Shown here in pieces: positions 4,956-57,542 of a stretch of 64,000 nt of DNA. The notes beneath the pieces were generated by a model, which had not been told where the DNA came from, searched no databases, and worked only from the letters and a program-made list of their open reading frames with translations. Source of the stretch: Gracilariopsis chorda (lineage: Eukaryota > Rhodophyta > Florideophyceae > Gracilariales > Gracilariaceae); contig NBIV01000276.1 in assembly GCA_003194525.1 (NCBI GenBank), forward strand, positions 1 to 64,000, in the 5' to 3' direction. The position numbers and the translations under genes are program-made. Positions within the stretch are counted from its first letter, which is position 1. Each line of letters opens with the position of its first letter.

Positions 4956-5236
4956 CATAGTTGAAACTGGTGTCCAAGTTCATATGGAGTTTCGTGAAGT
5001 CACATCTTTGTTCGAAATTGGAGCTCGTTTTGTAGTTAGAGTCAGTGAACAGAAGTTTGGAACCGTCGCTACGGAGCTGGTGAAATGAGATGACTCTCCA
5101 GCCCGGGCTTTACTGTTCGCTCAGTTCTTTTCAGTTACCTGAAGCTCATATTTGTTGTTCTGTGATCAGAAGTTAATATTTTTATCGATTTTGTTGGATT
5201 GTATCGCACTCCATAGATAAGTTTCGTTCTGAACAG

Positions 5237-7200
5237 TTGCATTGTTGGTCTGGAACGCTAAAGAGTTCGGCCAGGATGCAGACAAGGAGCTGCTCCCGCG
5301 CCAATAAGCTGGAGGTGGCAGGATCCCGTTTAGCTACATCCACCGAGGTGGGCAATCCTTTATACCGGCAGGCAGGGAGGTCACGTTCAACTGGAGCAGC
5401 CGAAGCCTCTTCGGGTGTACCAACTCCAGCTGCTAGAGGAGCTGCTACCATACCTTTGTCTTGCGCTGGTGACGACAGAACCCTAAGCGCTGAACTGCAG
5501 CAACTCCGCGCGGAATCTGCAACGCAGAAGTTCCGTCGGGAGGAAATGGAACGTCAGGTCAACAGGTTGACATTGTCAGTGGAGACGTTACATGAGGTGC
5601 ACCTTGTCATTCAGAACCAAATGAACGATAATCAGTTACCTGAAACAGTTCAGATTATCCGAAGAGACGTTAATCCCATAATGGAGGAAAGAGGAGAGGC
5701 ACCTAGGGCCCCACCAAGATTACCGGTCACTGTTGAGGAGGTTTTCTCACGCGTTAACCCTCGCCTAGAGCCTCTGAAACAAGTGGTGAACACACCAATA
5801 GAAGTGGATCAGAGTAAGGCGAAAAGCGCCAAACAGCGTGAACTGTCGTCGAAGGGCGAAGACCGCCGTTCCATACAGAATAAGAACCCATGGCGGCGCT
5901 CCAAGAAGAAGTGGAGATCCGCGAGAGACGACTCAGCCCACTAAGATGAGGATTCGGATGTTGCGATGATGATGACTTCGAATCGAATAGCTATGGGGAA
6001 GACGATTCATCTCAGGATGACAGCTCTAGTGAGGACGAGTACCGATGTTCAAAGAGGAGGAGTAGTAGCTTAATGTTACGCCACAAAATGGGACCGCTTT
6101 ATTTAGGCTTGAAACCTCTGCCTTGCACTAATCCGCCTTATTGGAAGATAATAAACTATCGGATGTACCTTTTACGCGTTCGTGAGCGCAATCGCTCTGG
6201 ATGTGAGACTAGAAAGGTGAGATATCACATTCGTCGAATGAAGATTGGGTCCCAAGACCATAGCTTCAACCGAAAGGACCCGATACTCGTGTCTGACTGT
6301 CTAAGCCGATTGGTCGCCGAGGCGAACAAGCTGGATATGACCGAGGCTCAAGCGCTAGTGGCCCTACCACATTTCCTGAAGGATTGCGCTCTCTAACAAT
6401 ATCGAGCCGTGAGTGGCTGCTTAAACGTAGATGATGGCGGTGTCTCCGCGTAGTGACGCGAGAAGTACTGCATGGCCTGAGGCCGTGCAGTACTTCTTGC
6501 GTCACTACGCGATGTCCAAAGCTATGAGGAGCGCGATACTCGATCTCAGGTATGTGACCCAAAATAATGACGAGGACGAGACCAAGGTCAGTTCGAGGCT
6601 GAATAATGAAGCACACATTTGCGGTAGTATTCACTCAATGGATGATAAGATGACACTGTACATCGATGGCTTACAAAAGGCTATCACGTTCCTTGTTGCC
6701 GGTCATCGGGAAAGGCACACCCGTACCAAGTTTCTTGAGCTCGTGCGTTTTGCACCGGCCAAGGTAGATGCCGTCCGAGCTCGTGAGCTCGTGGTGAATG
6801 GCTGAATCACACCCGGAAGCTGTTATCGGAGCAGCATATTGCAAAACAGGGGCCTTTGATGTACATCGAATCTCCTGAGAACAGAAGTGCCTCTGCGCAG
6901 TCTCCTGCAGCAACGGGTCATGATGCGCATGAAGCCCTTTACTATTTGGGAGAGCCCATTGGATCTGTGCCAACTACATAGTTACCCTCCACCGAAGAGA
7001 GTGACCTGTTGGCCATGGAGCAGCGTCCGTACCCTTATCGAAGGGAAGGAATGGTCCCGCCCCCGGTACGATTTACGTCGAAGAAGCTAGGATGGGTTGA
7101 TACCCGTGTCTCTCATGCCCAAGGAAGATTCACCAGGGATAACCTGATTTGCTACAATTGCTATGCAAAACATCACGTGTCCTCGGAGTGAACACTCTCT
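5237..7200 (+). pseudogene. gag region of gypsy-A
   Basis: The first part encodes a Gln/Glu/Arg-rich segment with coiled-coil character (about 5470-5680). The middle matches the gag of gypsy-B in layout, including an LTR-retroelement capsid-like stretch around 6290-6800. A zinc-knuckle-like CYNCYAKHH motif lies near 7148-7180. The region is broken and is treated as a fossil. Confidence 0.7.
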
Positions 7201-7649
7201 TCCAAAGAGCTTTCCAGAATCATCCTGAATTATGTGGCTTTACACCAAGCAGAGAGGTAACGTGTACCCGCGAACTCGTGTTGGAAGGCCAAGGCCTGGG
7301 TAATTGCGAATGGAATGCATCAGACCGCTTCTGTCATTCCAACGACGAACGCACCCCAAGTGCAGTCGTGGCCGAACCCAGCACCTCTATTGGGGAATAG
7401 CAAGCCCGCTCAATCGGGAAACTAGAGGAGGGAGTCTTTAGGCGGTCGGTAAAGATCGATCCCATCTTACCAGCCGGTGTTTCGACATTGCCCTGCTCCC
7501 GGGATTTTAAGCCGAAGGTCCTTCTGAGACCAGAGAGATCTTCGGATGTCAGAAAACGATTGGAGGTCGACTGCGCTTTAAAACGCCCTTGGAGAAGATA
7601 TGTGTGCCCAGAAAGACGGACGGACTAAGTCATGATCATGGCCCGTAGG

Positions 7650-10600
7650 AATTATGAGGTCTATGCCGACATTGGCTCGTCAAAGTCTCTCCTGTCACGC
7701 AGGCTCTCAGTTCTCGACATTGGCGCCGTGCCAAACTTTATCAGACTCCCTGGATTACAGTCCAACGAGCGAGCTCGAATGTAAGAGGAATGCCTACCGG
7801 ATATCCGAGAGGCAAAGAAGAGACTCATCAAGTCTCTTGGAACGATAAAACTTGTCGCTCAAATTGGAAATCATGTTTTCAGGCTGTCGTTTATCGTGCG
7901 TACCACGTTAGCTGCACCAGTTGTGCTTGGTTGTGATTATTTTGACAGGTGTTTTGAAGCAACTCGCCCGAAGAATCGGGAAGTTGAGTTCGACCACAGG
8001 TCCATTGTACCGATAGTGCGGAAGCCATTACGGCGTTCAAACGCAACTGCTCCGCTACCATCTTTGCAGGAGTACGAAGCCCCAGAGGGTAGATCCTCAC
8101 CACGCATTCGTTTGTCTCAGATGGCAGTGGTGCCTCCCCAACATCAGGCTTGGATAAAGGTCACGACTGCGAAGCATGTACTCATTGTCATTCAGCTGAA
8201 TTCGGCACTTTATCATACCCATGGAGTACTTGTCGCTAACGGCATTGACCAAGTGGAGCCCAACAGGCCATTCAAAATCCTGATGAGCAACACCGGAGTG
8301 AATGAATGCAGATTGCACAAGAATCAGGTTCTTGGAACCGCTCTGCCACATCGTTTGGTAGTCACACCTACTCATCTTATGACTGCAGACGTCTTAAGAA
8401 TATCATCTAAGAGTGATTTGCAGCAGACACCGGCACAAACAGCGACGGACAACGTGAAGGAGGAGAAGGTTTCCAAGAGGGAAACTGAAGAAACCTTCGA
8501 GGGCGTGAAGATGGAACACGTACATGAGGAATATCATGAGAGATTACGCAGACTACTGCTGAAGTTTTCACATGGGTGGCATGGCCACCTTGGCCAAATT
8601 GATGCAACAGAGCATCACATCGACGTGTTGCAGGGCACTACACCCATCGCCCAACCGCCATATCGGGCTGGGCCGCCTGCCCGACAAGTCCAACACGAAC
8701 ATGTTGATTCCATGCTGTAGAAAGGAATTATTGAGCCAGCTCAATCAGCATGGGCCTCACCAGTGGTGTTAGTTCTGAAATCATATGGATCGTTACGCTC
8801 TTTTGCGTTGACTACAGGAAGCTGAATGCAGTAACAGTGAGGGATACTTATCCATCGCCGCTCATGGGTGAATGCCTCGATAGCCTTGGTGAAGCCAACT
8901 TATTTACTACGCTTGACGCTAATTCGGGTTACTCGCAGGTACCCGTTGCACCGAAAGATCGCGACAAGACAGAATTTGTCTGCCACGCGAGACCACATCG
9001 TTTCAAGCGAATGCCTTTTGGCTTCCCCAATGCTCGTGCGACATTTCAGCGCACTATCGATATTATACTAACAGTATAAATGGAAGACCTGTTTAGTGTA
9101 CTTGGACGACATCATTGTCTACAGTGGTAATATGGAACACCATTTCTCTGATGTCGAGGCAATTTCAAGCAGTTGGATAATGCTGGCATTTCATTGACGA
9201 TTAAGAAGTGCAAATGTTTTACGAACCAGGTGAAGTACCTCGGACACCGGATCAAACCGGGAAATTTAGAAATCGAGGAGACTTAGACCGCTGCAAAACG
9301 TGAAGCAAAACCTCCGTGGACACAGAAGCAATTACGTGCCTTTTTAGCACTCTGTAACGTTTATAGAAGATTTGTTCCACGCTATTTGCATGTCGCTGCG
9401 CCTTTGAACGCTTCATGGAAAACAGGGGAACCCTCACAGTTGAAGGAATTCGTGGAAGGCAAAATGGACGCTTTCGAAACACTGAAGCAAATGCTGACCT
9501 CAAACCCATTGCTACGACTTCCGAAAACGGATCTACCCTTTTCTGTCTACACGGATTCTACTGACTACCAGCTCGGATGTGCCCTTTTTCAAAAGTACGA
9601 AGACGGTAAGCGTTATCATATTGGATATTGGTCTCGTTCACTGCATCAGGCAGAGAAGAACTACTCCGTTTCCGAAAAGGAAAATTTAGCTGTATTATGG
9701 GCTCTTAAGACCCTTAGGTCTTACATACAGGGGGTACATTTCACCGTCAACACGGCTCATTCTTGCTTAAGATGGTTTCTGCCAATTTCTGACCCCTTGG
9801 GACGCTTCATGTGCTGGCGGCTACTCCTTTCTGAATTTGACTTCACAGTCATGTAAAAGAAAGGGAACTATAATGTCCATGCTGACACGCTTTCGCGGCT
9901 CAGAACTCTGGGCGAGACCAAACTGGAAATTGATGATTGCATAACTTGTTTTATAATGGATGAGCTGGTATTTCCAGAAACGGAAGTGGAATCTTGGGAT
10001 GAAGACGATTACATCACGAATGTGCTGATAGGGCAAACAAAAAATACTGATGCTGACCGGCAGCTTGAACGAATTACGCTCGAGGAGCTACTCCGTGAAC
10101 AGTTCATTGACGCTTTTTGTGCAGCAATCCGCTCACGTCTTAACGGGAGGGAGGTGCTACCTTTTCATCTCGACGATCGCAGAATATTAGTTCGAGTTGT
10201 CTAGGTTTATGTGCAGATTGTAATACTACACTCTCTCATGAGCAGGGTACTGCATCTGGCGCATTATTCCCAGCTATCTGGTAATCTAGTCGGTACGAAG
10301 CATTACCTAAATCTATGAAGAGATTTCTATTGGCCAGAGTTGGCAATAGACTGCCACGCCACGGCTAAATTGTCCGCAACGTGCGCTAAGAACAGAGTGA
10401 AACAGTGGAAGAAGAAGCCACTGAAGCTATTTCCGGCGAAAGCGCCTTTGGAGTAGGTGAGCATAGATATACTTAGAGAATTAACTCGCTCTAAGCGAGG
10501 GAACAGGTACCTCTTGGTAATTACCAATTGCTTCTCGAAGCTGATGAAAACTGTTCCGCTTAAACGGATTACCGCTCCCGTGATAGCACGAGCTCTTATC

Positions 10601-11000
10601 CACCATTTGGTTTATTATTACGGATCCCGGATAATCTGCTCTCAGATAATGGAAAGCAATTTGTTGCTCGCTTCTTCCAGGTCGTATGCAGGATGCTGGG
10701 TGTGAAGAATGTGTTTACCACGACACATTATTGGCAGTGCAACGGCCAGGTGGAACGGTTCAACCATACTATACTAGCCGCTCTTCGGCACTACATCGCT
10801 GATCATCCAAAGGATTGATATCTGTATACTGACACGATCGGTTATGCGTACAATACACAGGTTCATTCGACGAAGAGGGATGTCACATTCGAGCTGGTGC
10901 TGTCACGCCGACCAGCGCCTCTACCGATCGAGGTTAGCTCGAAGAACGAGGAGCTCAAAGACATGCCGAGCCAGCTCAATTTCACCTACGCTGAAGGCAC
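7650..11000 (+). pseudogene. pol region of gypsy-A: protease, reverse transcriptase, RNase H, integrase
   Basis: The protease end is seen around 7890-8050 (PVVLGCDYFDR, shared with gypsy-B). Reverse transcriptase lies about 8530-9330, with CVDYRKLNAVTVRDTYPSP and a YLDD-type catalytic site near 9100. RNase H lies about 9470-9860 (SVYTDSTDYQLGCALFQ). Integrase follows with its zinc-binding part near 10240-10400 and core near 10450-11000. All parts are in the normal Ty3/gypsy order. Many breaks are present. Confidence 0.85.
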
Positions 11001-11269
11001 GAGCGGCGCGTATGTGCCGTGCAAGCCACAAATCCAATGGGAAAGAACCAAGGACGGTTTAAACGCAATTATGACGCTACGATTAGACCTTCTATTGCGG
11101 ATTTGTGGATTGGAGCACACGTAGTCGTGAGCATACAGAGAAGGACGGGAAAACGCCCGAGTAAAACTGAGAACGACGACGCTGTCACAAGCTAGCCCCA
11201 ATTGCGACGGCACCGCATGAAGTAGTCGAGATCGACAAGGACATAGTTGTCATTAGGAGAGGGAAAGAA

Positions 11270-12382
11270 GTGGAGCGCATATCACGTGATCATGTGGTGA
11301 GTGCACCAATGGCTGAGGCTGACACGCAGGAAGCGGTGGCCTCTCGTGCAGATTCGCTGGAGTTGACGCCAATCCAGCCACTCACAAGGCAGAACCCCCG
11401 TGATGTGACACCACAGGCCAGATTAATTTCGAAAAAAGTGCCACCTGGCGATACGGGCCATAATGACCGTTTTGCAGAGCGCAACGGCGCGTTGCCACCA
11501 TACAGTGCGTCCATGGACGATATTACTGATTCAGGGGACCCTGTGAAGACAGTGAAGGCGACGTGTGTCGTACCAGGACCGCCTCCCGCCACTGCGACCG
11601 AACGCAATGAACGAGGAAGTGTGTCGAGTGACGAGAATTGCGAAGCTGAAGGCGACAACGCCACCAGTCAAGCACTCGAATCGCGTGACGAGAAAGAAGG
11701 TGCAACTGCACATGTAGAAACCGTAAAGTATCATGGAGACAGGGAGAGGAAAGAAAGAAATAAGGTTCAAGTGGCATGGTCACAAGGGAAGCTTGTTTCG
11801 GCCGAGCCTACTGTAGGGGAGGTTGGACAAGAAGGGGAACACCCCCACCACACCGTCCACCGTAAGCCCGCGGTTAGGGAGGCCTTCGCAGGCTATTCTC
11901 AGGTCTACATTGACGAAGTAAATCACGTCTTCGTCGATTGAATCGGTTATAATGAATGTTGAGTTGGGAAAACCGGCCTACCCAAAAAGGAGAGAAAATC
12001 CAGAAGACTGGCTATTAGACGCCCATCGGCGGGCATTTCGGAACGGGATACCGTCGATGCGGACGAGAGGTCACCAAATGAAATCGATGTTGAGTGAAGT
12101 CAGCGACCCACACACGAGGGGCGTAAACCATTGCTTACTGACAGGGACACAACCGCAGCTGAGGAACTCGACATCGAGAGTGAGGACTTTATTAAACGTA
12201 TCGTTTCCAATGGACGGGATGAGGACAACAGTTTACGGGTCAATGTAAGATGGTACGGGTACGCACCCAGTAGCGATACTTGGGAGCCAATTGGAAATTT
12301 ACCACTATCTCATGTACCGTCGTACTGCAAATGGGCTAGCATAGCCATCCCTAACAACATTGATGACGCTCTTATCTGTTAA
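11270..12382 (+). pseudogene. Integrase tail linker and chromodomain of gypsy-A
   Basis: A long open, hydrophilic linker (11270-11941) follows the integrase. A chromodomain is recognisable about 12170-12345, with VNVRWYGYAPSSDTWEP, the aromatic-rich core that binds methylated histone tails and steers integration in chromoviruses. The same domain ends gypsy-B. Broken. Confidence 0.75.
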
Positions 12383-12639
12383 ATGGATGAAGATCTCGTT
12401 GATCAATCAGAAGCTTAGAAGGAAGCATGAAGGAGAAGCTCTTGTTCGAGAAGTAGAAGAAAAAGTGAAGAATCACGTAAGGAAGAACCATTAGGATGGA
12501 AAGGGATGATAAAGATGAAGCAAGATGACCCAAGCCTCAAGAACATACAATTAACACAAGCTATACTATTCAAGTGAAATCACTACTGATGTTCACAGAG
12601 AACGAGAGCGTTATGTAATCGTATTGGGCGTACCGTTTA

Positions 12640-14261
12640 TGCGAGCGGGCAGGAGGTTAACCATTTGTCGGCGGCTATTCGGGATCTGTCCCGGCGGAAC
12701 ACCCGAATCCAGGAGGAGGAGCCTCAGACAATGGAGCTCAGCCTAACCTTGTAGTGTTGGCATGCGAGCAGGCGTTGAAGCAGACTCCTGTATTGCAGCA
12801 GGAGTGGGCTCCACGTCGTTTGGTGCGTCCACCTCCTCTTCGGGTTCTCCCATCGCAACATCGTTAACTACCTACTCGTATTCGTCGACGAGAGCGTCAG
12901 AGTTCACCGGCATTGGATCAAATAGGTAACCAGTAGGCTGCGTTGGCGGCATCGCTCGCCTATTTTCGCGCAGATGCTTGGCCTGTCTGCCATCCATGTA
13001 CTAGCTCTTCCAGGGACCATACCAGTTGAAATCACCACCAGGACCATTTCTCCCAGGAGAATGGTCAATGCGAGGATTTATTCTTGAACTCTGTTCTGCG
13101 GGGACGAGAGTCCAGTTCAATTGATTAATAATGTCGAGAAGGCGACGAATTTCCTCTTGCTTGGCTCGGGAGCCTAGGATGAAGGAGAGGTCGAGTTCTC
13201 GTCCGTAATGGCGAGCCATCGAAGTCATGTAGCACAAGCAGTAGTTGTCATAAACGTCCCAGAGGACATACTCTGCCATTTTGGCCATAAAATCTGTTTA
13301 GATCACTACCCAATACCCCGAAAACGGATCGTTTGTTAGCAGGGATCCTGTATAGGTCAGGGCTGGAGGCAGCTCCACCGCACAGCTTGAGGACACTCGA
13401 TTTCATGCCAATGTCTTGGAATGGGGATGTAGCGCCCAATGCGCGAGCGATACTGGGCACAGTCAATCTCAAGCAAATGGTAGGGCACGAGGTACCCAAG
13501 TCTTGAACTGGTCTGCCTTTACCATCGTGGGTACTCCCATTAATGGATTTCACGCTTACGCAGGTATCGGAACTCCGTTCGGAGTTGAGGACTGTCGAAG
13601 CAGAGAGCTACAGGGGACACGCTACCACGGGCACCACGGCACTGACGGACTTCTAGGCTCGCAAGATTCTCGAAGTACAAGTAAGCTTCCCCGTTGGTCC
13701 TAGGAACCCAGGTTTCAAAGTTTCAATCTTGATTGTGGGGAACTGTCCCAATGACACGCCGCATTCGCGAATAAACCAATCGTACAAACTGTCTGCGGGC
13801 GTCCGCGGACTGATCGCACTATCTGGAAGAGCACAGTAGCTCAGCCAATCGCTCGTGTACAGCGCAAACCACGGAACACAATCAGGGAGTCGACCAGCGA
13901 CCACGTATGTTCCAATAAGACTTTCATTGTGGAAAGGCGGTTGGAAGAACCATGGTGCGCGTGAGTACGAGGCCAAATGTTCCAATGGCTTGCATCCGAC
14001 CAGTTCCCCATAAGACAGGAAGTTGTTTACACCAGGATTAGGAACCAGCTGGTTCGGTGTGGCAGGAAGAAGGTAGGGTGGGATCACCTGATTCGATGCT
14101 GATTGCGGCAGGGAAGCCGTCTGTGACGCAGGCTTCAGCGGGTTTTGCGAAGCAGGCGGCTGGTGAAGAGCGTCAAGGTCGTCAAAACACGCAGGCGGAT
14201 TCACGTATGGAGGGAAACTCATCGGATTAAAAGTAGGATTGCTTGGAAAACTTGAGTGCAA
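12640..14261 (-). pseudogene. Antisense coding-like block between chromodomain and 3' LTR of gypsy-A
   Basis: Three open stretches on the minus strand (13653-14261, 13248-13553 and 13001-13288) have balanced, protein-like composition and follow each other in one direction, opposite to gag-pol. The first begins with a Pro/Asn/Gln-rich leader and continues into aromatic-rich sequence. No domain was recognised. Some plant gypsy elements carry additional antisense frames at this place (for example Grande and RIRE2), which is the closest precedent known to me. Alternatively it is a host fragment captured by the element. It is broken, and no function is proposed. Confidence 0.4.
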
Positions 14262-26257: not shown

Positions 26258-27082
26258 TGTGGTGCAATGCCCCAAAGGGGAAAAACACCGAAAGACGTCC
26301 GGGATCTTCCTCTCACGAGGTGAACCCAGTTGGGTAGAGCCCTCCCAGAGGTGTCACGGCGAAGCCGGTTTGTAAGACCAGGGACACCTGTCGCGACTTG
26401 CGCAGGGAGGTGAAGGCGAAGAATCGGTATCCGCGTGAGCGGGGGGTGATCCTCAGTAGAGATATGTTTCCGCCAAAGTGGGGGTGTGTGTGCGGATGCA
26501 CCGACGAGGGCCGCGGATAGCGGGAGGTGCTACCCTAAAAAGGGGAAAAAGGAAGGGCGAAGAGGAGGAGGAGAGGACGAAGTGAGTTGCGAGAGCGACA
26601 GGGACGAACGGCGATGCCGGTAACAATATCCCTATACAGGGCGAAACACCAATGCAATTGGAACAATTATACTCCCATTGATGGGTCCCTTTAGATGTGC
26701 AAGGGGGTTAGATGTCCCGTGGTTTACGGCGTTTCCCTCCAAGGAGGAGTAGAGTACGCGCGCAAGCGGCAACAACTAGAGCCAATCCCCCAGGTTTGGG
26801 TCCCTTGTTTCGGAAGGCTTATTGGTGCGAAGGCAGTGTGCCGTCTGACTAAGTACTAGCTTCCCAGAAATGGGTGTGAAAATAATAAATAAAATCAACT
26901 AAAATACTCCACATTTCGTGGCAACATCCACTACTGTGGCCAACCGCCAATTGGCCCAAAACAGTGTCTCACGTGTCCATACCCACCATTGTGGGGCGTA
27001 GTTCATATACACACTACACAACCGATAATATCGGGAAAACGATCAACTACCAAGAATCCCTCCCTGAGGGCGTTGCACTTCA
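26258..27082 (-). repeat. Solo LTR of the gypsy-B family inside the Helitron
   Basis: This 825-bp sequence is homologous over its full length to the two LTRs of gypsy-B (48043-48865 and 56598-57432) and lies in the same orientation. It begins TGTGGTGCAATGCC and ends GGCGTTGCACTTCA. It is flanked on both sides by GTAGC (26253-26257 and 27083-27087), a perfect 5-bp target duplication. A full element inserted here and then recombined between its LTRs, leaving one. It shows the same small hairpins as the other copies. Confidence 0.93.
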
Positions 27083-27211
27083 GTAGCTCAGGCAAGGAAT
27101 GATCCAGCTATCCGTGCAAGCGTGTTGAAGTTTGAGACGCTTCCCACTGCAGGCCAAAGGCGATGCAAAATATGAGGCGAACACTCATACACGCTCTCCT
27201 CCTGCCCGTAC

Positions 27212-31362: not shown

Positions 31363-31410
31363 CTTTCTGCACCCTTTTTTCTTCCCACCGCTTTTTATCA
31401 ATCCTATACC

Positions 31411-48001: not shown

Positions 48002-48042
48002 CAGCGTTTGCGTACTGGAGAGGTAAGGAATTCGAAGGAAAA

Positions 48043-48865
48043 TGTGGTGCAATGCCCCAAAGGGGAAAAACACCGAAAGAAGTTCGGGATCTTCCTCTCA
48101 CGAGGTGAAACCAGTTGGGTAGAGCCCTCCCAGATGTGTCACGGCGAAGCCGGTTTGTAAGACAAGAGACACCTGTCCCGACTCGCGCAGGGAGGTGAAC
48201 GCGAAGAGTCGGTATCCGCGTGAGCGGGGTGTGATCCTCAGTAGAGGTATGTTTCCACGTAAGTGGGGATGCGTGAGCGGGTGCACACAGGAGGGCCGCG
48301 GGTAGCGGGATGTACTACCCTGAAAGGGGGAAAGGAGGAAGAGTGGGCGAGGGTGAGTCGCAAGAGCGACGAACAAATACGGCAATGCCGGTGGGCAGGA
48401 CTCCCTATACAGGGCGAAACACCAATGTGATTGGAACAATTATACTCCCAAGTGTGGGTCTCTTTAGGTGTGCAAGGGGGTTAGAGGTCCCGTGGTTCAC
48501 GGCGTTTCCCTCCAAGGAGGAGTTGAGAACGCGCGCAAGCGGCAACAACTAGAGCCAGTTCCCCAGGTTGGGGTCCCTTGTTGGGGAAGCTTTACTGGTG
48601 CAACGGCAGTGCGCCGTCGCACTAAGTACTAACTTCCCAGAAATGGGTGTAAAAATAATAAATACATCTAACTAAAATTATTAGAAATACTCCACATTTC
48701 ATGGCAACATCCACTACCGTGGCCAACCGCCAATTGGCCCAAAACCGTGTCCCACGTGTGCATATCTACCATAGTGAGGCGTAGTTCATATACACACTAC
48801 ACAACCGATAATATCGGGAAAACAATCAAGTACCAGGAATCCCTCCCTGAGGGCGTTGCACTTCA
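48043..48865 (-). repeat. 3' LTR of gypsy-B (left on the plus strand)
   Basis: Starts TGTGGTGCAATGCC and ends GTTGCACTTCA; homologous to 56598-57432 and 26258-27082. Contains small hairpins such as CCCCAAAGGGG, CCGCGTGAGCGG and CCTCCAAGGAGG. Confidence 0.95.
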
Positions 48866-48880
48866 TATCCCCCTCCTGAG
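48866..48880 (-). other. Polypurine tract of gypsy-B
   Basis: On the minus strand CTCAGGAGGGGGATA lies directly before the 3' LTR, where plus-strand DNA synthesis is primed. Confidence 0.75.
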
Positions 48881-49121
48881 ACGGGAAAACGACCGCGGAC
48901 GCGGAGGACTCCCAGACGAAAATGGGTGATAAAAGCGCGTGCGCCGTCTCCGGTTCTTCTTTCCTGGCTTAGCCAGCTGGTGTAGTATAGTGTTGTGGGG
49001 CGCTAGCTGCTCCCTTGAATAAACTTTCCCGTTTAGAACGGTGATTATCGTTTGAGTTCCCCGTCTTCGACGGACCTTGCCTTGTTATCCTTTCCTATCG
49101 CCCTTCGCTCGCCCGGCAACG

Positions 49122-50018
49122 TTACCCAACTTGGGCATTGACCAGCGTGGCTGGAGCTGCAGTTCCCGTTTGACGGTGGTATCGCACGACGTGGGACCGT
49201 GGGAGGTGTTCGATTAGCTCCCACGTATCCCCACTGGGGTCATACCCGTACCAGCGGACGCAGTATTGTAGAATACCATCCTGGTCCCAGGTGTGTCCGA
49301 CAAGTCGGTCTACTACGAACTCTCGTTCGTAGACCTGCCGGCCGTACCGGGTGGTGGTTGTACTCCCTTGAGAGGGTTGCCCGCGGTGCGGTATAATGTC
49401 CCTTAGTAGGGTGTTCGGCGACAACTCCGTCGTTGCCGTGCGCTGTGGTAGCGGCCTCTGCTCGTGCGGGAGGATATCCCTCAAGAGGGTGTTTGGCGTC
49501 ATGGTTTTCACCGCCAAGTCATTCCCCATTGGGGCAGGGTCGTTTCCACTTTCGCGGTATTGCGGGCGAACCGCCAGTCGGCGGGGAACTTGGGCTCCGC
49601 CTTGGCTGTTGAGCTCACGAACCGCGAGTTTGCGGGAAGATGACCGCTCCTGCGGAATCAGCGTTTCCACGATCCCCTGGGGGGTCGTGTGCGACGCGGT
49701 GATTGCATGGCAAACCGCCTCCCTGCCAGGCGCACGAGCGCTCTGCACCATACGTTCCGGCGACGCCGTGGTGTCCACGGCTACTGACGGGCTACCTGGG
49801 GCTAACTCCGCTACACCGGTATTTTGGTCCAAATTCCCCTTTGGGGGGTGCCGGGCAGGTGCCGGTGACACCCTTTTCAGGGGCTTGGCCGCTAAGTGTG
49901 GTGCACCGTCTCCATGGGGAGGGGCAGCGTCCGGTACGACCGGTTTCGAGCGTGCGATGGCGCGCGTTTTTCCCGAGTTCCTCGGTTCTTCGCCACAGTG
50001 TTGCGGAAGTTGGCGCAA
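49122..50018 (-). CDS. gypsy-B C-terminal part with chromodomain
   Basis: The end of this frame contains VDRLVGHTWDQDGILQYCVR and WYGYDPSGDTWEL, a chromodomain with its aromatic cage residues, preceded by a Pro/Arg/Thr-rich linker in which the phrase NTLLRDI is repeated. This part targets integration to marked chromatin. Fossil of a retroelement; described by part only. Confidence 0.85.
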   Translation of the reverse strand: MRQLPQHCGEEPRNSGKTRAIARSKPVVPDAAPPHGDGAPHLAAKPLKRVSPAPARHPPKGNLDQNTGVAELAPGSPSVAVDTTASPERMVQSARAPGREAVCHAITASHTTPQGIVETLIPQERSSSRKLAVRELNSQGGAQVPRRLAVRPQYRESGNDPAPMGNDLAVKTMTPNTLLRDILPHEQRPLPQRTATTELSPNTLLRDIIPHRGQPSQGSTTTTRYGRQVYEREFVVDRLVGHTWDQDGILQYCVRWYGYDPSGDTWELIEHLPRSHVVRYHRQTGTAAPATLVNAQVG

Positions 50019-51619
50019 ATTATTCCCCGGAGCGGGGGCTTCGATTCCGTCGACGACGGGAGGCGTTTCCGGCGCCTGCGCACCAGTGTTCCATATGTTA
50101 AGTGTTTCCCGTTGTGACGGCGATATCGTTCCTCGAAAACGAGTGTTCTCCTCCCCCTCCTGAGACGGAGCGGTGGGATAAGGGATAACATTCCCCGCCT
50201 GGCGGGTGTAAATTTGCGCCAGGGGGTGGGCGTGGTAGGGGCGGGCGCTGAGAGGCCCGAATTACCCGGCTGAGCCGGTGAGTCCGACAGGGTTGGTAGG
50301 TCTGAGAGTCCCCGGCTGGGGTGTGGTAGTACCGTAGGCCTAGTACTCCCGGATGATTCCGGTGTTCCAGAGTCCGTAGGAACGGGGTTGCCTGGATCCA
50401 GGACTACCTCTGACGAGGGAGGAGGGGTAAGGACAACACGATTACGGGAAGTCCGTTCGTGCGTGTCGCCCATCTCTACCACGACAGTGTCGGTGTTTAC
50501 AGAGATGACCTTGAATGGTCCGTCCGCCACAGGCGAGAGTTTATGACGCTTCTCCCGTTCCGGATTGTAGTACTCCTTCCTGATGAAGACGTAGTTATTT
50601 GCCCGAATCGGGGGGGTCTTTCCTCGCAAGCGATCATCAAAATCCCGCTTATAAGCGGCTTGGGCCCGTGCCATAGACCTCCGCGCAGCGGGGACCAGCT
50701 TGGAAAGCCATTGCTTCCATTGCCGCCGGTAGATACCCACTGATGGGAAATTGTCCAAGGTAGCTTGGGGTTCCAGCGCCACAGGCGGGGGCATTCTAGA
50801 TAGAACCAACTCGAATGGTGAAACTCCGGTAGTCCAGTGTACCTGCGTATTGTGCGCGAAGGTTAACGCGTCAGCGTAGAGATCCCAATTCTTTGGGTGG
50901 CCAGCGACGTAGGAACGTAGCGCCGCGAGTAACGTCCGGTTAAACCGTTCAACTTGCCCATTACACTGGGGGCGGTAGGTAGTCGTGAACAAGTTCTTGA
51001 CATCCGGGATGCCACAAACATCCTGGAAGAACTTGCTCGCGAATTGTTTCCCGTTATCGGAGAGCACCTCCACAGGAGGACCGTAGACAAAAATCCAGTG
51101 GGTCACAAGAGCCTGGGCCACCGTGAAAGCGGTTATCCTCCGAAGAGGGACAGTCCACACCAGCTTGGAAAAGCGGTCGGTAATGACAAGTAGAAACGTT
51201 TTTCCACGTTTTGTGGTGAGTAGTGGTCCGAGAATATCAATTGCAATAAACTCGAGTGGCGACCCTGCGGGGAATAGTTTCATCTTCTTCGCATTTTTGC
51301 GGAGCTTGACGCGATTCTTCGCGCATTCGCTACAGAACCGCACAGTTGCGTAGCAATCCACCGCCATGGCGGGCCAATAGAAATCCATTCGCAGGGTTAG
51401 GTAGAGTTTTCTCCCACCTGGGTGACCTCTCATGGGGGCGTAGTGTGATAGATGTAACACCCGCGATTGCAAGGAATGTGGTACCACAATCTGTGGGCGG
51501 GATTCCACCTTCCGGACGAGGTAGCCCTTGTTGTCCACCCCGAAAGGGAGATCTTCACCACCGTTAAGACGGGCACGAATCCTCGTGCAGAAGGGGTCAC
51601 CGAACTTTTCTCGGATCAT
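50019..51619 (-). CDS. gypsy-B integrase region
   Basis: The frame contains the zinc-binding region (HLSHYAPMRGHPGGRKLY and CSECAKNR), the DDE core (FIAIDILGPLL, VLSDNGKQFA and NGQVERFNRTL) and a GPY/F-like module (SPVADGPFKVISVN). All parts usual for chromovirus integrase are visible. Confidence 0.9.
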
Positions 51620-51652
51620 CTCTTCCGGTGAAACCGGTACAAAATTTCCCGG

Positions 51653-53296
51653 TCATGGGTTCTCAGAATCATCTCGCGATGCGAGTAGGTCGTCAAAGTC
51701 AGCATCCTCGTCCCAGTTTTCTGGCCCAGCCTCGACGGCACACTCCGGATCATCCGGGTCTATAGCCATGAAGCATGGGACTTCATCATCCTCTGTTGGG
51801 AGTGCTTCCCCACTTGTGGGTAACCGCGATAAAGCGTCGGCCTGGGTGTTCTGCGCACCCTTTTTATAAATGACTTGAAAGTCATATTCCGCGAGGCGGA
51901 GTCTCCAGCGCATGAGGCGTCCCGACGGGTCGGAGATATTCATCAACCACCTCAATGAGGAATGATCCGTGTACACGGTGAAGTGAATTCCCATAAGGTA
52001 GGGGCGCAGAGTGGTCATCGCCCATACGACGGCGAGGCACTCTTTCTCCGATACGGAGTAGTTCCGCTCATGAACATTGAGCGAACGTGACCAATAACCA
52101 ATTGGATGTCGTTCCCCCTCGGGGGTGGTTTGAAAAAGAGCACACCCGACTTGGTAGTCGCTCGAGTCCGTATCTACGGAGTATGGCAACCCAAGTTTTG
52201 GGAGATGTAGGATTGGTGCTGATGTGACAGCCTCCTTTAAGGAGTTAAAAGCTTCCGATTGCTCGGGCGTAAATGTTCCCAGGTTTGGGGAGTTCCCCTT
52301 TCGCAACAACGCGTTCAGGGGCGCTGCAGTATCCGAAAAGTTCGGGATAAACCGTCGATAGACGTTGACCAGTCCCAGAAAGGAGCGCAGATCCGTTTGA
52401 GTACGGGGTTCTTTCGCCTCAACGAGGGATTTGACTCGAGCTTTCTCGATCGCTAACCGTCCAGGAAGGATAATGTGACCCAGATACTTCACAGTATCTG
52501 TGAAAAACTCGCATTTCCTCAACTTGAGGTTAATTCCCGCATCGCGGAGTACGGTCAGCACGTCTCGGACGTGAGTGAGATGGTCGTGCAACGAGTTGGA
52601 GAACATGATAATATCATCAAGGTAGACCAGACAACTCCGCCACTTAGAGCGATTGAGTAGCATATCTACTGCACGCTGAAAGGTGGCAGGGGCGTTGGTT
52701 AACCCAAATGGCATCCGCTTGAAGCGGTACGTTCCTGCGTGGCAGATGAATGCGGTTTTGTTGCGATCCTCCTGTCTGACAGGTATTTGCCAATATCCCC
52801 AATTGGCATCGAGAGCCGTGAACACGGTGGCGTCTCCGAGGGATTCAATACACTCGTCCATACGAGGGATAGGGTACGTGTCCCTAATAGTCACGGCATT
52901 GAGCCGGCGGTAGTCGACACAGAACCTCCAGGTTCCGTCGGCCTTCAAAGCCAGTACAACTGGGGATGCCCAGGGTGATTGAGCGGGCTCAATCACCCCT
53001 GCGCGGAGCATCTTGTCCACTTGGGACTGCTCCTCTTCCCGAGCTTTCGGACCTGCCCTGTAAGGGGGTTGCGCAACCGGTCGCGCACCGGGGATTAGAT
53101 CAATCCAGTGTTCCGTTGCATTTATCTCGCCAAGCGAGCTATCCCACATAGTGGTGAATCCCCGTAACATATTACGGGGTTTGTCAGGGTGCGACTCTGG
53201 CACATGGCTGAAGTCCAGTGCTTCAAGTGCCTTATCCGGATCAATCCGGTCGTTGCTCAACGGAGCATTGTCCTCTTTCACAGGTGTGGTTCGCAA
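51653..53296 (-). CDS. gypsy-B reverse transcriptase and RNase H
   Basis: A 547-residue open frame. Reverse transcriptase motifs: GVIEPAQSPWASPVVL, RFCVDYRRLNAVTIRDTYPI, FKRMPFGLTNAPATFQ and the catalytic YLDDIIMFS. RNase H motifs: YSVDTDSSDYQVGCALFQ, SVSEKECLAVVWA and VYTDHSSLRWL. The order and length are normal for Ty3/gypsy. Confidence 0.93.
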   Translation of the reverse strand: MRTTPVKEDNAPLSNDRIDPDKALEALDFSHVPESHPDKPRNMLRGFTTMWDSSLGEINATEHWIDLIPGARPVAQPPYRAGPKAREEEQSQVDKMLRAGVIEPAQSPWASPVVLALKADGTWRFCVDYRRLNAVTIRDTYPIPRMDECIESLGDATVFTALDANWGYWQIPVRQEDRNKTAFICHAGTYRFKRMPFGLTNAPATFQRAVDMLLNRSKWRSCLVYLDDIIMFSNSLHDHLTHVRDVLTVLRDAGINLKLRKCEFFTDTVKYLGHIILPGRLAIEKARVKSLVEAKEPRTQTDLRSFLGLVNVYRRFIPNFSDTAAPLNALLRKGNSPNLGTFTPEQSEAFNSLKEAVTSAPILHLPKLGLPYSVDTDSSDYQVGCALFQTTPEGERHPIGYWSRSLNVHERNYSVSEKECLAVVWAMTTLRPYLMGIHFTVYTDHSSLRWLMNISDPSGRLMRWRLRLAEYDFQVIYKKGAQNTQADALSRLPTSGEALPTEDDEVPCFMAIDPDDPECAVEAGPENWDEDADFDDLLASRDDSENP

Positions 53297-54110
53297 TTAC
53301 GAGTTACTCGGTATGTTCGACGCTAAAGTAGCGGTTTCCTCCCCCTCCTTAGACTTGACTTCTTCGGACGGCGGGGCGAACTCCTGAGAAGAGGTGGAAA
53401 CTCCGAGTACATCGGCGGCTGTCATCTTCGTTGGCAGCATTCCCATAGGATGGGGGGTTACACTCCCAATTACTTGGTGTTTTACCAGATACTGGGGGTG
53501 TTTGCCAAGGTTGGCAACCAATATCCGGAAAGGGACATCCGGGGAAATGGAAACAATTCCATTAGCCAGTGCCTGCGGGGATTTCTCGTACAACGAGGCG
53601 AGGGGTTGTATAACCCGAAGACCGTGTTGACGGGAATTTATCTGCACCCAGACGTGGGACTCAGGCGGTATAGAAACCGAGGCAGCGATGCGGAGCTTGG
53701 TGGACTCGCGAGACGCGGGCGGTGGTTCCTTGCGCAGCAGGGAGTGGAACTTGTTTCCGAGAGGACCGCTTTAGCGGGCGGTGAACAATCGGAACCGACG
53801 ATCCGTCGTCCAGTTCTACACGCCTGAGGCGGGGCCTGATTGCGTCGACAAATCTGTCGCAGTAATCACATCCCAGTATAACTGGTGCTGCCAATGAACG
53901 GCAAACGATGAAGTCCAACTTCACCGCAGAGGTACCAAGTCTCACGACGAGGTCCACTGTGCCCACCGTTTGTAACCGATTGTTGTTCGCATCCGAAATT
54001 TCGGGTACCGCGTCAGAGCGGATACAAGACCGCACAAGCGGGGGTAACAATGATTCCACAACAAAGTTGGGGCCTGCACCTGTATCCAGGACAGTGAGAA
54101 ACCTCACCAT
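53297..54110 (-). CDS. gypsy-B protease region and linker
   Basis: The frame at 53661-54110 reads VLDTGAGPNFVVESLL, the DTGA active site of a retroviral-type aspartic protease, then PVILGCDYCDRFVDAIRP, the flap and end of the domain. 53297-53647 is the linker before reverse transcriptase (FRILVANLGKHPQYLV). Confidence 0.85.
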
Positions 54111-54357
54111 AACTGGGGATCAAGGCCAAGGTCAGCATAGACCTTATAATTCCGCTTGGCCAAGACCAAGACTCTACCGGGAATCCGGGGATTTTTACTC
54201 CGTACCCACGGGCGACGCAACACACCGAGGTGCGCAGATTCCGCGTCGGCGGTGTCTTTCCTCGAGAGGACTTTCACCGGGGAGCGAGGCCAGGACACCT
54301 CGGGTGCCAACAGCCTCTTGTCTGAGGACGCCTCTCCCAAAGCGGAGACTCCCTCAG

Positions 54358-56160
54358 TTAGTTTTCTGCCTTCGGCGGTGGGTTGGTTTCCTCAACAACG
54401 ACTGCTTCATCCCGTTGACGGGGGTTTCTATACGCATAAGCGGGGGTTGCAACGGATGGTTGCGCGATCTCCCGAATCGGGGTGTATGAAGCTTGCCGTG
54501 CACGCGGGGTTTGTGGTAGGGCATGGGAAAAGTCCGTTTTAGCACGGAGGTAGGAAGCCGTCGGGACGGAACGTTTCTCCTCTGGAGTGAGGGTCTCGTA
54601 GTTTGCCACCACCTTGGCCATATCCTTCAGTGAGCAGATACACTGAGGCGAGGTTTGGCCATGGGCATAACAAAGGTGGCAAATGAGAGCCAACACCGCG
54701 ACACGCGGATTATTATTCCGAGTATCGGAGGAGCGAACCGCAGGGCGGGTGTCAGTCCATCCAGACCGTTGATAACGGGATTGACCGTTTGAAAACGGGA
54801 GTCGTTGGGGTTGGACCCGACCGTTACCACCGTGTAGAATGCGATCTTCTGTTCCCGTATCACGGGTCATCTCCGTCGTTGACGGTAAATCGGTGGTTGG
54901 AATCGACACACCATCCCCCTGCACTAAATGCACGGTATCAAATCTCTGTCTAGGGTTCCCATACGCAGTGAGCGGGAGCGATGAGTAGTCGCTCTTCATC
55001 ATCAACGCCTTGGCGGATTTAGACCGATTGTTTGGAGTTCTTGCACGAAGGGCATCCCCTTCCGCTCGAGCGTGTTGTAACAGCTCGAGATAGGTGATCC
55101 TCCGCTTATCCTCCCGATAACGGGTAACTAAACTCCGGATTGCCGGGTCAAGACCATCGATGAACATGGTAACGCGCTCCCCAGCGGGGTATACGTTACC
55201 ACATCTGTGGAAAGCCTTGTTAAGGCGCACCGAGTAATCGGTCTCGGTCTCTCCAGCACGCTGGCGTGTATCTCGCAAAGCGAGGATAGCCTGCTGAATA
55301 GCGGTGTTTGTGGCGTAGGAATGCAGTAGATACTGCACCGCTTCCGGCCAGCAAGTAAGTCCTCCCTCGGAGGCGCGGGAAGATCCTCTGACAGAGTTGT
55401 ATTGGTCCTCCGCCACTCCCCGTAAGAAATACGGTAAAGCCAAGTAGGCTTGTCCCTCATTCATACCGAGGATATCGGCCTCCGCTACAAAGCGGGATAG
55501 GAAATTCAGTACTAGGACCGGATCCTCTCCAGTAAAATACTGGTTGCGGAGTGAGAGCTGCATTCGCTTAATGCATTCTCGCACCTTTCCCGTACCACGG
55601 GGCGTACGTCCAGGTGACGAATCTTCGAGCCGGTAGTACCGGTATGATAATAACGTCCGGTAATCTGGGTTTGTCAGCTTCAACTCCCAGAGCCCGGGGT
55701 GTCTTCTCCCCTTCTGGCGGGTTTGGATCACACCTTCAGTGGCCGATGACCGCTTCGAGCGGGAGGAGTAGCCTGGCTTCTCGTCCTCCGAGTCGGAGTC
55801 CGAGGAGCTCGACCTAACCGAATGGTTTCGGGATGAATCCGACGATGTCGAAGAATCAGAGTCCGAATATTTTCGGTCGTGTTTCCGTCGATGACGTCGT
55901 TTCTTCTTCCCAGCAAGCTGGTCGTTGTGCGATGCCTCGTTTACTGGATCATCCGGGGATGGTTTGTCCATGAGGACGAACTGCTCCAACATCTCCAGCC
56001 GGGCACCAATCCTATCAAATCGGGCTTCAACTCCTTCGATGAAGGTGGCGGGTTGCCCCATACTCTCCAACACGGAGTTGACATCAGACCGTAAAATACA
56101 GAGGTCCTCGGCAACCTCTTTCACATGGGTTGCCATAACCACCTCTTGGAGGGATTTCAA
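54358..56160 (-). CDS. gypsy-B gag
   Basis: A 600-residue frame: N-terminal helical part, Ser/Asp/Arg-rich linker (about residues 90-150), then the capsid-like region (YFTGEDPVLVLNFLSRFVAE and QAYLALPYFLRGVAEDQY), and a C-terminal part with a zinc-knuckle-like Cys/His cluster (ALICHLCYAHGQTSPQCICS). The DNA here has the highest density of perfect mini-hairpins that I counted. Confidence 0.88.
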   Translation of the reverse strand: MKSLQEVVMATHVKEVAEDLCILRSDVNSVLESMGQPATFIEGVEARFDRIGARLEMLEQFVLMDKPSPDDPVNEASHNDQLAGKKKRRHRRKHDRKYSDSDSSTSSDSSRNHSVRSSSSDSDSEDEKPGYSSRSKRSSATEGVIQTRQKGRRHPGLWELKLTNPDYRTLLSYRYYRLEDSSPGRTPRGTGKVRECIKRMQLSLRNQYFTGEDPVLVLNFLSRFVAEADILGMNEGQAYLALPYFLRGVAEDQYNSVRGSSRASEGGLTCWPEAVQYLLHSYATNTAIQQAILALRDTRQRAGETETDYSVRLNKAFHRCGNVYPAGERVTMFIDGLDPAIRSLVTRYREDKRRITYLELLQHARAEGDALRARTPNNRSKSAKALMMKSDYSSLPLTAYGNPRQRFDTVHLVQGDGVSIPTTDLPSTTEMTRDTGTEDRILHGGNGRVQPQRLPFSNGQSRYQRSGWTDTRPAVRSSDTRNNNPRVAVLALICHLCYAHGQTSPQCICSLKDMAKVVANYETLTPEEKRSVPTASYLRAKTDFSHALPQTPRARQASYTPIREIAQPSVATPAYAYRNPRQRDEAVVVEETNPPPKAEN

Positions 56161-56578
56161 TTCCCCTACAAGGGTGTCGTGGGCAGTCCACAGGGCGCGG
56201 ACCTGGGAATCCAGGGGTGTCCCCTGGGGGTGTTGTCGACCGTTCCACGGGATTTTGATACCGCGACAGCGGGAGTCGATGCATCATTCCCCTGCAGGGG
56301 TGACAACAAGGGCAAAGGAGTGTTCCGGGGTTCCCGTGGTTGGTTTGAATTCCTCGAAGAGGGTCCACCAGCAAAGCTGGAGCCGGTCCGCTTCGGAATG
56401 CGCGATACGAACCGAACTTCGGGGACTTCTCCACCATCGTGGGAACGACTGCGGGTGACTGCACGCTCCGCATCGGAGGGTTGCCTGGACATGAGGAGCA
56501 ACCGTCACGACGGAAACGATTCCGGAACTTCCGGGAAGTGGAAGACAAACCTCGAAAGAGGGAAAACAAACACCGATT

Positions 56579-56594
56579 CTAGGTCAGGAGACCA
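56579..56594 (-). other. Primer binding site of gypsy-B
   Basis: TGGTCTCCTGACCTAG on the minus strand, three bases inside the 5' LTR. Similar to the gypsy-A site. Confidence 0.6.
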
Positions 56595-56597
56595 CTT

Positions 56598-57432
56598 TGT
56601 GGTGCAATGCACCAAAGGGGAACAACACCGAAAGAGGTTCGGGATCTTCCTCTCACGAGGTGAACCCAGTTGGGTAGAGCCCTCCCAGAGGTGTCACGGC
56701 GAAGCCGGTTTGTAAGACCAGGGACACCTGTCGCGACTTGCGCAGGGAGTTGAAGGCGAAGAATCGGTATCCGCGTGAGCGGAGTGTGATCCTCATTAGA
56801 GGTATGTTTCCACGTAAGTTGGGGTGTGTGGACGGATGCGCACACGAGGGCTGCGGGTAGCGGGATGTACCACTCTGAAAGGGGGAAAGGAGGAAGAGTG
56901 AAGGGAAAGGAGGAAGAGTGGGCGAGGGTAAGTCGCGAGAGCGACGAACAAATACGGCAATGCCGGTGGACAGGACTCCCTATAGAGGGCGAAACACTAA
57001 TGTGATTGGAACAATTACACTCCCAAGGATGAGTCTCTTTTGGTATGCAAGGGGGTTAGAGGTCCCGTGGTTCACGGCGTTTCCCTCCAAGGAGGAGTTG
57101 AGAACGCGCAGAAGCGGCAACAACTAGAGCCACCTCCCCAGGTTAGGGTCCCTTCTTGGGGAAGGTTTATTGGTGCGACGGCAGTGCGCCGTCGCACTAA
57201 GTACTAGCTTCCCAGAAATGGGTGTGAAAATAATAAATAAAACTAACAAAAACACTCCACATTCCGTGGCAACGCCCACTACTGTGGCCAAGCGCCAATT
57301 GACCCAAAACCATGTCCCACGTGGCCATATCCACCATTGTGAGGCGTAGTTCATATACACGCTACACAACCGATAATATCGGGAAAGCATTCAAGTACCA
57401 AGAATCCCTACCTGAGGGCGTCGCACTTTAGA
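56598..57432 (-). repeat. 5' LTR of gypsy-B (right on the plus strand)
   Basis: Partner of 48043-48865. It contains an extra short tandem duplication of GGGAAAGGAGGAAGAGTG-type sequence near 56880-56920 that the other two copies lack. Confidence 0.95.
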
Positions 57433-57542
57433 AAAAGGCGACAAATGTCACTCAGATGCGTGTATTTCGGTTGCAAAGCTTCGAACTCAGCAAAAATACC
57501 AGTTCGTACTATTATTAGTATTATCAGCTTATATGGTTGTGA

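What the first reader, a model, noticed from the sequence alone, without database searches (positions are those of the whole stretch)
48043..57432. A retroelement whose whole length is packed with perfect mini-hairpins
In gypsy-B, both LTRs and coding regions contain many perfect short inverted repeats. In gag between 54411 and 54885 I count ten with stems of at least 5 bp and loops of 1-5 bases: 54411-54422, 54449-54463, 54471-54481, 54558-54569, 54696-54708, 54717-54729, 54766-54778, 54785-54798, 54854-54866 and 54873-54885. Examples are CCGTTGATAACGG, CCCGTATCACGGG and CCGTCGTTGACGG. With equal base frequencies about two or three would be expected in 475 bases. Five more lie in 51809-51960 (RNase H), including TGACTTGAAAGTCA and TCCGCGAGGCGGA. 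Most begin CC and end GG. The reading frames stay open, so codon choice appears bent to keep the pairing. Gypsy-A nearby does not show this on reading. Possible causes: RNA packaging or Gag-binding sites, shielding from small-RNA silencing, or repeated reverse-transcriptase template switching that perfects imperfect palindromes. I know of no description of it.
Basis: partly seen in the sequence, partly recalled or inferred. Interest (0 to 1): 0.88.

Follow-up and report, generated by a model that had tools for sequence, protein, structure and literature searches.

The report
Retrotransposon packed with selected mini-hairpins
A jumping gene, probably from a red alga, carries a short perfect hairpin about every 60 letters along its length, and natural selection appears to keep those hairpins paired, which points to a structural signal spread over the whole element.

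Summary
All 10 gag and 5 RNase H hairpins exist. The Ty3/gypsy element has 19.1 perfect inverted repeats per kb against 6.2 in the rest of the window; its four ORFs exceed codon shuffles by z 5.0-12.1. The unit is stereotyped: 4-5 bp stem, 3-5 nt loop, span 12-14 nt. Among 23 RT rows of this genome the trait marks one clade of five families, Gypsy-A included (1.98-4.48 times expected); the other 18 loci, sister family included, show 0.62-1.30 once nested gypsy-B DNA is masked.

It looks maintained by selection. In gag, 0 of 294 stem sites carry a variant shared by three or more copies, against 77 of 1,406 outside hairpins, while private mutations fall equally on both. Shared double changes mostly restore pairing (6 of 7 types; slid partners 3 of 15), and private mutations do not perfect near-palindromes, against template switching. 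G-U pairs gain no tolerance, so the strand is unresolved. Function is unproven; I favour dispersed Gag contact or condensation sites.

The parts
48043..57430 (-). Ty3/gypsy LTR retrotransposon with chromodomain, gypsy-B, packed with mini-hairpins
   Evidence: LTR pieces 88-93% identical; Pfam RVT_1, RT_RNaseH, integrase, Chromo; 19.1 perfect inverted repeats per kb
48038..48042 (.). target-site duplication GAAAA, left
   Evidence: read; the same five bases at 57431-57435
57431..57435 (.). target-site duplication GAAAA, right
   Evidence: read
48043..48865 (-). 3' LTR (TG..CA), 9 hairpins (loop 1-4) in 48043-48863 vs 2.7 in dinucleotide shuffles
56598..57430 (-). 5' LTR, 9 hairpins (loop 1-4) in 56598-57428 vs 2.9 in dinucleotide shuffles
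54358..56160 (-). gag ORF (600 aa); relatives and a young copy bear a CX2CX4HX4C zinc knuckle, which the window copy's reading does not match
   Evidence: 31 hairpins vs 7.9 codon-shuffled
54411..54885 (.). the ten hairpins of the finding
   Evidence: 10 of 10 verified; 12 in a full scan with loops 1-6
51653..53296 (-). reverse transcriptase and RNase H ORF (547 aa), densest in hairpins (38 vs 6.7)
51809..51960 (.). five RNase H hairpins of the finding
   Evidence: 5 of 5 verified
49892..51619 (-). integrase ORF (22 hairpins vs 7.5)
49122..50018 (-). ORF with chromodomain (15 hairpins vs 4.5)
5000..13000 (+). Gypsy-A, a decayed clade mate (RT 52% identical), hairpin excess about twofold; limits approximate
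26258..27083 (.). match to the gypsy-B LTRs (86-87%), no other part of the element matched beside it: probably a solo LTR

Best explanation
Gypsy-B belongs to a clade of LTR retrotransposons whose whole genome is kept, by selection acting while the element replicates, as a dense array of stereotyped mini-hairpins (4-5 Watson-Crick pairs, a free 3-5 nt loop, span 12-14 nt, one with a stem of 5 or more about every 58 nt). SHOWN by sequence: the excess, its fixed size, its restriction to one clade of five families among those sampled in this genome, less shared variation in stems at equal private mutation, and pairing restored in shared double changes. INFERRED: the hairpins act in bulk rather than as single signals, because their positions turn over between families while the excess stays. 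INFERRED, LESS SURE (about 0.35): what must fold is the packaged genome (RNA and probably its cDNA), and the hairpins serve as dispersed contact or condensation sites for Gag, whose relatives bear a conserved zinc knuckle.
For: Excess over codon shuffles in all four ORFs of the window copy and in a young RT copy, 36 vs 6.0. Exact size classes: loop 3/stem 5 42 vs 3.7 expected in a young copy. One clade, support 100/99, with sister family L070 at 1.08; 18 of 18 non-clade loci at 0.62-1.30 after masking nested gypsy-B DNA. Hairpins are common to most of 28 gag copies and break in single copies. Shared variants avoid stems: gag 0/294 vs 77/1406 sites (p 5.5e-7) and LTR plus leader 18/214 vs 144/1008 (p 0.02), private variants equal. 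Shared double changes are Watson-Crick in 6 of 7 types, slid partners 3 of 15; gypsy-B to F3 9 of 12, slid 16 of 57. Zinc-knuckle residues invariant in 13 of 13 aligned Gags, the young copy included.
Against: In PR-RT the deficit of shared variants in stems is not significant (6/283 vs 44/1122, p 0.21). Between families, four-fold sites in stems are significantly more conserved in only 2 of 8 comparisons. Gypsy-A shows no excess of paired double changes (gypsy-B to Gypsy-A 7 of 25; slid 39 of 155), and L070, which lacks the trait, does (19 of 34; slid 43 of 212), which I cannot explain. No G-U preference as expected of a sense-RNA structure. No loop motif and no regular spacing, so no direct sign of a Gag site. 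Nothing here is experimental.
Confidence: 0.45

Rival explanations
1. Mutational origin: during reverse transcription (or host replication) the growing strand snaps back and copies itself, turning imperfect palindromes into perfect ones; no function is needed. The clade limit would reflect a property of the clade's RT.
For: Strict Watson-Crick pairing without strand preference, paired double changes and the clade limit would all follow. One window-copy hairpin (8 bp stem) differs from the young copy at three places that all complete it. The mechanism is known in principle (template switching between inverted repeats; PMC8604942, listing with abstract start).
Against: Private mutations at mismatched pairs of near-perfect stems are not biased to repair: 61/220 vs 3674/11140. 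The strict size limit and the highest density in the conserved RT-RNase H ORF are not predicted. Shared single breaks are rare in gag stems without a matching crop of compensated pairs there (0 of 294 sites vary). Caveat: most private mutations arose after insertion, so errors of the last copying cycle are diluted.
Confidence: 0.2
2. Selection at the DNA level: the integrated copies benefit from palindromes able to extrude as cruciforms or other non-B DNA, for example for chromatin state or centromere association.
For: No strand or G-U preference, LTRs included; short dyad symmetries are reported as enriched at centromeres of several species (PMC9070824, passages).
Against: Stems of 4-5 bp are short for extrusion (recalled). 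Copies lie on many contigs, the window's beside ordinary ORFs; no centromere map is held. The same paper finds dyad symmetries not to be a main feature of Drosophila melanogaster centromeres except the Y.
Confidence: 0.12
3. Sense-RNA structure that shields the transcript from small RNAs or from antiviral sensors, like genome-scale ordered RNA structure of RNA viruses.
For: Folding energy below dinucleotide shuffles in the young copy (mean z -1.27 sense; background -0.13).
Against: The antisense strand is as structured (-1.19); G-U is not tolerated above A-C (19 vs 19 shared variants; 126 vs 118 between families).
Confidence: 0.18
4. Artefact of base composition, codon usage or the host's mutation spectrum.
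For: The element is richer in GC (0.55) than most of the window.
Against: Dinucleotide and codon shuffles, mirror repeats, non-coding LTRs, and L070, a sister family with GC 0.54 in the same genome without the trait.
Confidence: 0.02

Closest known systems
Genome-scale ordered RNA structure (GORS) of positive-strand RNA viruses (PMC7642675, PMC3695492: listings with abstract start)
   Same: Structure beyond base composition along the whole genome, coding parts included
   Different: Here an LTR retrotransposon; a repeated unit of fixed size; no G-U tolerance; no strand difference. That GORS stems are of mixed length with G-U pairs is recalled
Dispersed packaging signals of RNA viruses (PMC6281560: listing with highlights)
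   Same: Many hairpins spread over the genome
   Different: No shared loop motif found; no capsid contact shown; far more hairpins per kb than I recall for such signals
Coding palindromes in mitochondrial genes of Nematomorpha (PMC6649704: abstract, passages and Discussion read)
   Same: Perfect inverted repeats kept inside conserved coding sequence, gained and lost between species
   Different: Those repeats have arms of at least 15 bp, mean 43 bp, and their authors raise repeat conversion; here 4-5 bp stems of one size class, with no repair bias in private mutations
Cis-acting RNA structures of Ty1/Ty3 (PMC5454406, PMC4974528, PMC8396678: listings with abstract start)
   Same: LTR retrotransposon RNA with hairpins and Gag interaction
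   Different: What the listing shows for Ty1 concerns the 5' terminus; no genome-long array of fixed-size hairpins appears in those listings

Membership tests
Ty3/gypsy LTR retrotransposon with chromodomain (chromovirus type) | RT-RNase H upstream of integrase | tested here: met
   ORF order on the minus strand
Ty3/gypsy LTR retrotransposon with chromodomain (chromovirus type) | chromodomain downstream of the integrase core | tested here: met
   PF00385 in ORF 49122-50018, E 4.7e-9
Ty3/gypsy LTR retrotransposon with chromodomain (chromovirus type) | LTRs and short target-site duplication | tested here: met
Ty3/gypsy LTR retrotransposon with chromodomain (chromovirus type) | Gag zinc knuckle (CCHC) | tested here: met
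   invariant in the young copy and 12 relatives aligned of 46 found; the regular expression finds none in the window copy
Genome-scale ordered RNA structure | folding energy below shuffled controls along the genome | tested here: met
   mean z -1.27 sense and -1.19 antisense over 48 windows of the 4.8-kb young copy; background -0.13
Genome-scale ordered RNA structure | genome of a positive-strand RNA virus | tested here: not met
   LTR retrotransposon
Genome-scale ordered RNA structure | pairing in the RNA strand (G-U kept) | tested here: inconclusive
   19 G-U vs 19 A-C shared variants; 126 vs 118 between families; no tolerance seen, strand unresolved
Dispersed packaging signals | common recognition motif in the loops | tested here: not met
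   loops diverse, commonest seen 3 times among 60 in the young copy
Dispersed packaging signals | capsid or Gag binding | not testable with these tools
   needs binding experiments
Template-switch (quasipalindrome) mutation product | new mutations perfect near-palindromes | tested here: not met
   private variants 61/220 vs control 3674/11140, p 0.11 in the opposite direction; shared variants 36/89 vs 1461/4749, p 0.063

The most novel reading that the evidence does not exclude
A new kind of genome-wide structural code: a retrotransposon lineage in which strict Watson-Crick pairing of a fixed-size mini-hairpin, in a family-specific dialect of stem bases, is selected along the entire genome without regard to strand, so that both the RNA and its cDNA fold into beads; single hairpins are interchangeable and only their density is conserved.
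Probability: 0.35. Interest if true: 0.9.

Novelty: new variant of a known kind. Interest (0 to 1): 0.8.

Why it matters
The cis-acting signals of LTR retrotransposons that I know of (recalled) are mostly local. Here selection seems to act on a uniform small structure over kilobases, protein-coding sequence included. If so, packaging, reverse transcription or protection of a retroelement genome can depend on its bulk fold. Because five related families in one genome have the trait and their sister family does not, the genome offers a natural comparison for finding the protein change that goes with it.

Tried and rejected
Composition or codon artefact: rejected by shuffles, mirror repeats, LTRs and the sister family. 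DNA-binding dimer site: disfavoured, since arm sequence is arbitrary, spacing varies from 3 to 5 nt and dialects differ. Template-switch perfecting: not supported. Sense-RNA wobble tolerance: a gag-only hint (7 G-U of 9 variants in two or more copies) vanished over 4.8 kb (19 G-U, 19 A-C, 16 other). Polarity of flanking bases: A/C-rich beside hairpins in gypsy-B gag, gypsy-B RT and F2 (0.68, 0.64, 0.70) but not in the gypsy-B 3' part, F3, L058 or Gypsy-A (0.42, 0.44, 0.50, 0.54), so dropped. Regular spacing: none, CV 0.96 against 0.76 for random rods. Two apparent exceptions outside the clade, L056 (1.81) and L059 (1.68), came from nested gypsy-B-like DNA. One search aligned copies in mixed orientation and is replaced. 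In one search the pooled third-codon count and the codon shuffle over the 3,300-base stretch of L041 assume one frame, which holds 15 stops; these two numbers are not used. Rows dropped: gag alignments use 28 of 30 loci (L034 and L042 lack full flanks); searches use all 30. Scans of viral and prokaryote contigs and Rfam at gathering score found nothing.
Full report
What is there. The window lies in a 91.3-Mb genome of 1,081 contigs. At 48043-57430 on the minus strand sits a Ty3/gypsy-type LTR retrotransposon: LTR pieces 88-93% identical, RT, RNase H, integrase and chromodomain, and GAAAA on both sides. Among named hits the best RT relative (71%) and six Gag relatives (45-63%) are from the red alga Agarophyton chilense, so the host is probably a red alga; this is inference. 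The family is numerous: 79 scored RT hits, the window's own included, at 92% amino-acid identity or more, and 40 scored gag hits, the window's own included, the other 39 at 93-95% nucleotide identity; both are lower bounds.

The observation. All ten gag hairpins and all five RNase H hairpins are where stated. The element stands out along the window: 13-25 perfect inverted repeats per kb in each kb of 48001-57000, against about 5 expected and 6.2 elsewhere. Codon shuffles that keep the protein give z 5.0-12.1 for the four ORFs, and six other ORFs of the window have no such excess. A young RT copy (L072) has 36 against 6.0 after codon shuffling. The non-coding LTRs are enriched too (9 vs 2.7 and 9 vs 2.9). 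The trait is common to the copies: 15.0-22.2 hairpins per kb in the gag part of 30 gag loci and 6.1-14.8 in 20 LTR loci.

The shape. Enrichment is confined to short loops, and mirror repeats are not enriched. Exact stems around free loops in the young copy L041 (4.8 kb): loop 3/stem 5 42 vs 3.7 expected, loop 4/stem 5 18 vs 3.7, loop 5/stem 4 69 vs 14.6, loop 4/stem 4 53 vs 14.6, but loop 3/stem 6 only 2 vs 0.9. The favoured span is 12-14 nt. The outermost pair is C-G in 46 of 60 stems of exactly 5 bp with loops 3-4, the next in 41 of 60; loops share no sequence. In L041, 79 hairpins (stem 5 or more, loop 3-5) have a mean centre distance of 57.7 nt and their stems cover 791 of 4,800 sites.

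Who has it. The tree has 23 RT rows: 20 loci picked from 150 scored RNase H matches, Gypsy-A, a young gypsy-B RT and a further family F3. Signature ratios are 4.48 for gypsy-B, 3.83 for F3, 3.04 for F2 (L067), 2.79 for L058 and 1.98 for Gypsy-A. These five form one clade with support 100/99; the sister L070 has 1.08. In that call the labelled group needed two changes, because L056 scored 1.81; L059 scored 1.68. Both hold nested gypsy-B-like DNA and fall to 0.91 and 1.16 when it is masked; the 18 non-clade loci then lie at 0.62-1.30. I did not rerun the tree test with the corrected label. Some of the 18 are near-copies of each other, so they stand for fewer families. Host genome, codon usage and mutation spectrum are common to all rows, so the trait belongs to an element lineage. 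The dialect differs: L058 has T-A or A-T outer pairs in 29 of 37 hairpins, gypsy-B C-G in 83 of 127.

Selection or mutation. In the alignment of 28 gag copies most hairpins recur in nearly all copies and break in single ones; 24 of 69 centres occur in one copy only. Private mutations hit stems as often as other sites, whereas variants shared by three or more copies, which must have passed through replication, avoid stems: gag 0/294 vs 77/1406 (p 5.5e-7); LTR plus leader 18/214 vs 144/1008 (p 0.02), with loops at 20/63; PR-RT 6/283 vs 44/1122 (p 0.21, not significant). At gag third codon positions shared variants are 3 per 129 stem sites and 52 per 428 outside (where hairpins had to be present in at least 7 of 28 copies). 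Where both partners changed in shared variants, 6 of 7 types are Watson-Crick, against 3 of 15 over six slid controls; private double changes are 2 of 6. Between families gypsy-B to F3 has 9 of 12 double changes paired, slid 16 of 57; pooled over directed comparisons of four families, which are not independent, 86 of 155. Against the reading: Gypsy-A shows no such excess (7 of 25; slid 39 of 155), while L070, which lacks the trait, does (19 of 34; slid 43 of 212), which I cannot explain. Gypsy-B and F3 share 16 hairpins at the same centre, of 34 and 24 compared; gypsy-B and F2 share 4 of 33, so positions turn over. Four-fold sites in stems are significantly more conserved between families in 2 of 8 comparisons. 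If palindromes were perfected by a copying error, private mutations should repair mismatches; they do not (61/220 vs 3674/11140), while shared variants lean that way (36/89 vs 1461/4749, p 0.063). This favours selection, with the caveat that most private mutations arose after insertion.

Strand. A sense-RNA structure should tolerate G-U. That does not show: 19 G-U and 19 A-C among shared variants, 126 and 118 between families, G-U in near-perfect stems 256 vs 287 expected. The folding excess is alike on both strands (-1.27 and -1.19). Either the pairing matters in RNA and cDNA alike, or in DNA, or such short stems are too weak for any wobble. I cannot separate these.

Mechanism. I commit to selection for bulk folding of the replicating genome, most likely for contact with or condensation by Gag, whose zinc knuckle CX2CX4HX4C is invariant in the young copy and 12 relatives (the motif's name is recalled). 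Shown by sequence: excess, shape, clade, stem constraint, compensation. Inferred: bulk rather than local action, and the Gag step.

Compared with what is known. Eight paper searches listed no description of such an array in a retrotransposon; each showed only its top rows and the library is open-access only. Nearest are genome-scale ordered RNA structure and dispersed packaging signals of RNA viruses (listings only), and the coding palindromes of Nematomorpha (Discussion read), whose arms are at least 15 bp and for which the authors raise repeat conversion.

Noticed in passing
G000 contigs C573, C883, C998, C1001 (steps of about 5,680 bases), C225, C509, C755 (about 6,350), C3:100168-119405 (about 8,812): Several gypsy families recur head to tail at constant steps, as if LTR retrotransposons stood in tandem arrays (positions; arrays not inspected).
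   Followed up: no
L041 4.8-kb map, positions 1-1500 (LTR and leader): Hairpin loops vary about twice as often as other sites there (20/63 vs 144/1008 sites with shared variants), in places all three loop bases at once while the stem stays.
   Followed up: partly
L056 2745-3797, L059 2486-3323, L068 1-589, L053 3590-3800: Gypsy-B-like DNA beside or inside other gypsy elements, 80-94% identical.
   Followed up: partly
L070 against gypsy-B hairpins in RT: The sister family lacks the hairpin excess, yet double changes at gypsy-B stem pairs are paired in 19 of 34, against 43 of 212 slid.
   Followed up: no
window 41900-43249, minus strand: ORF with a ferritin-like domain (PF12902); named homologues are bacterial, several of them actinobacterial, the closest (51%) unnamed: possible horizontal gene transfer.
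   Followed up: partly
window 2743-3618 (-), 28584-29333 (+), 45289-46326 (-), 33530-34828 (+): ORFs resembling a Ulp1-type peptidase (PF02902), Helitron N-terminal domain (below cut-off), DUF6818 and a vWA domain (below cut-off).
   Followed up: no
window 31410-32173: Two 300-base direct repeats, 464 bases apart, 76% identical.
   Followed up: no
window 26258-27083: LTR-like match to gypsy-B (86-87%), probably a solo LTR.
   Followed up: partly
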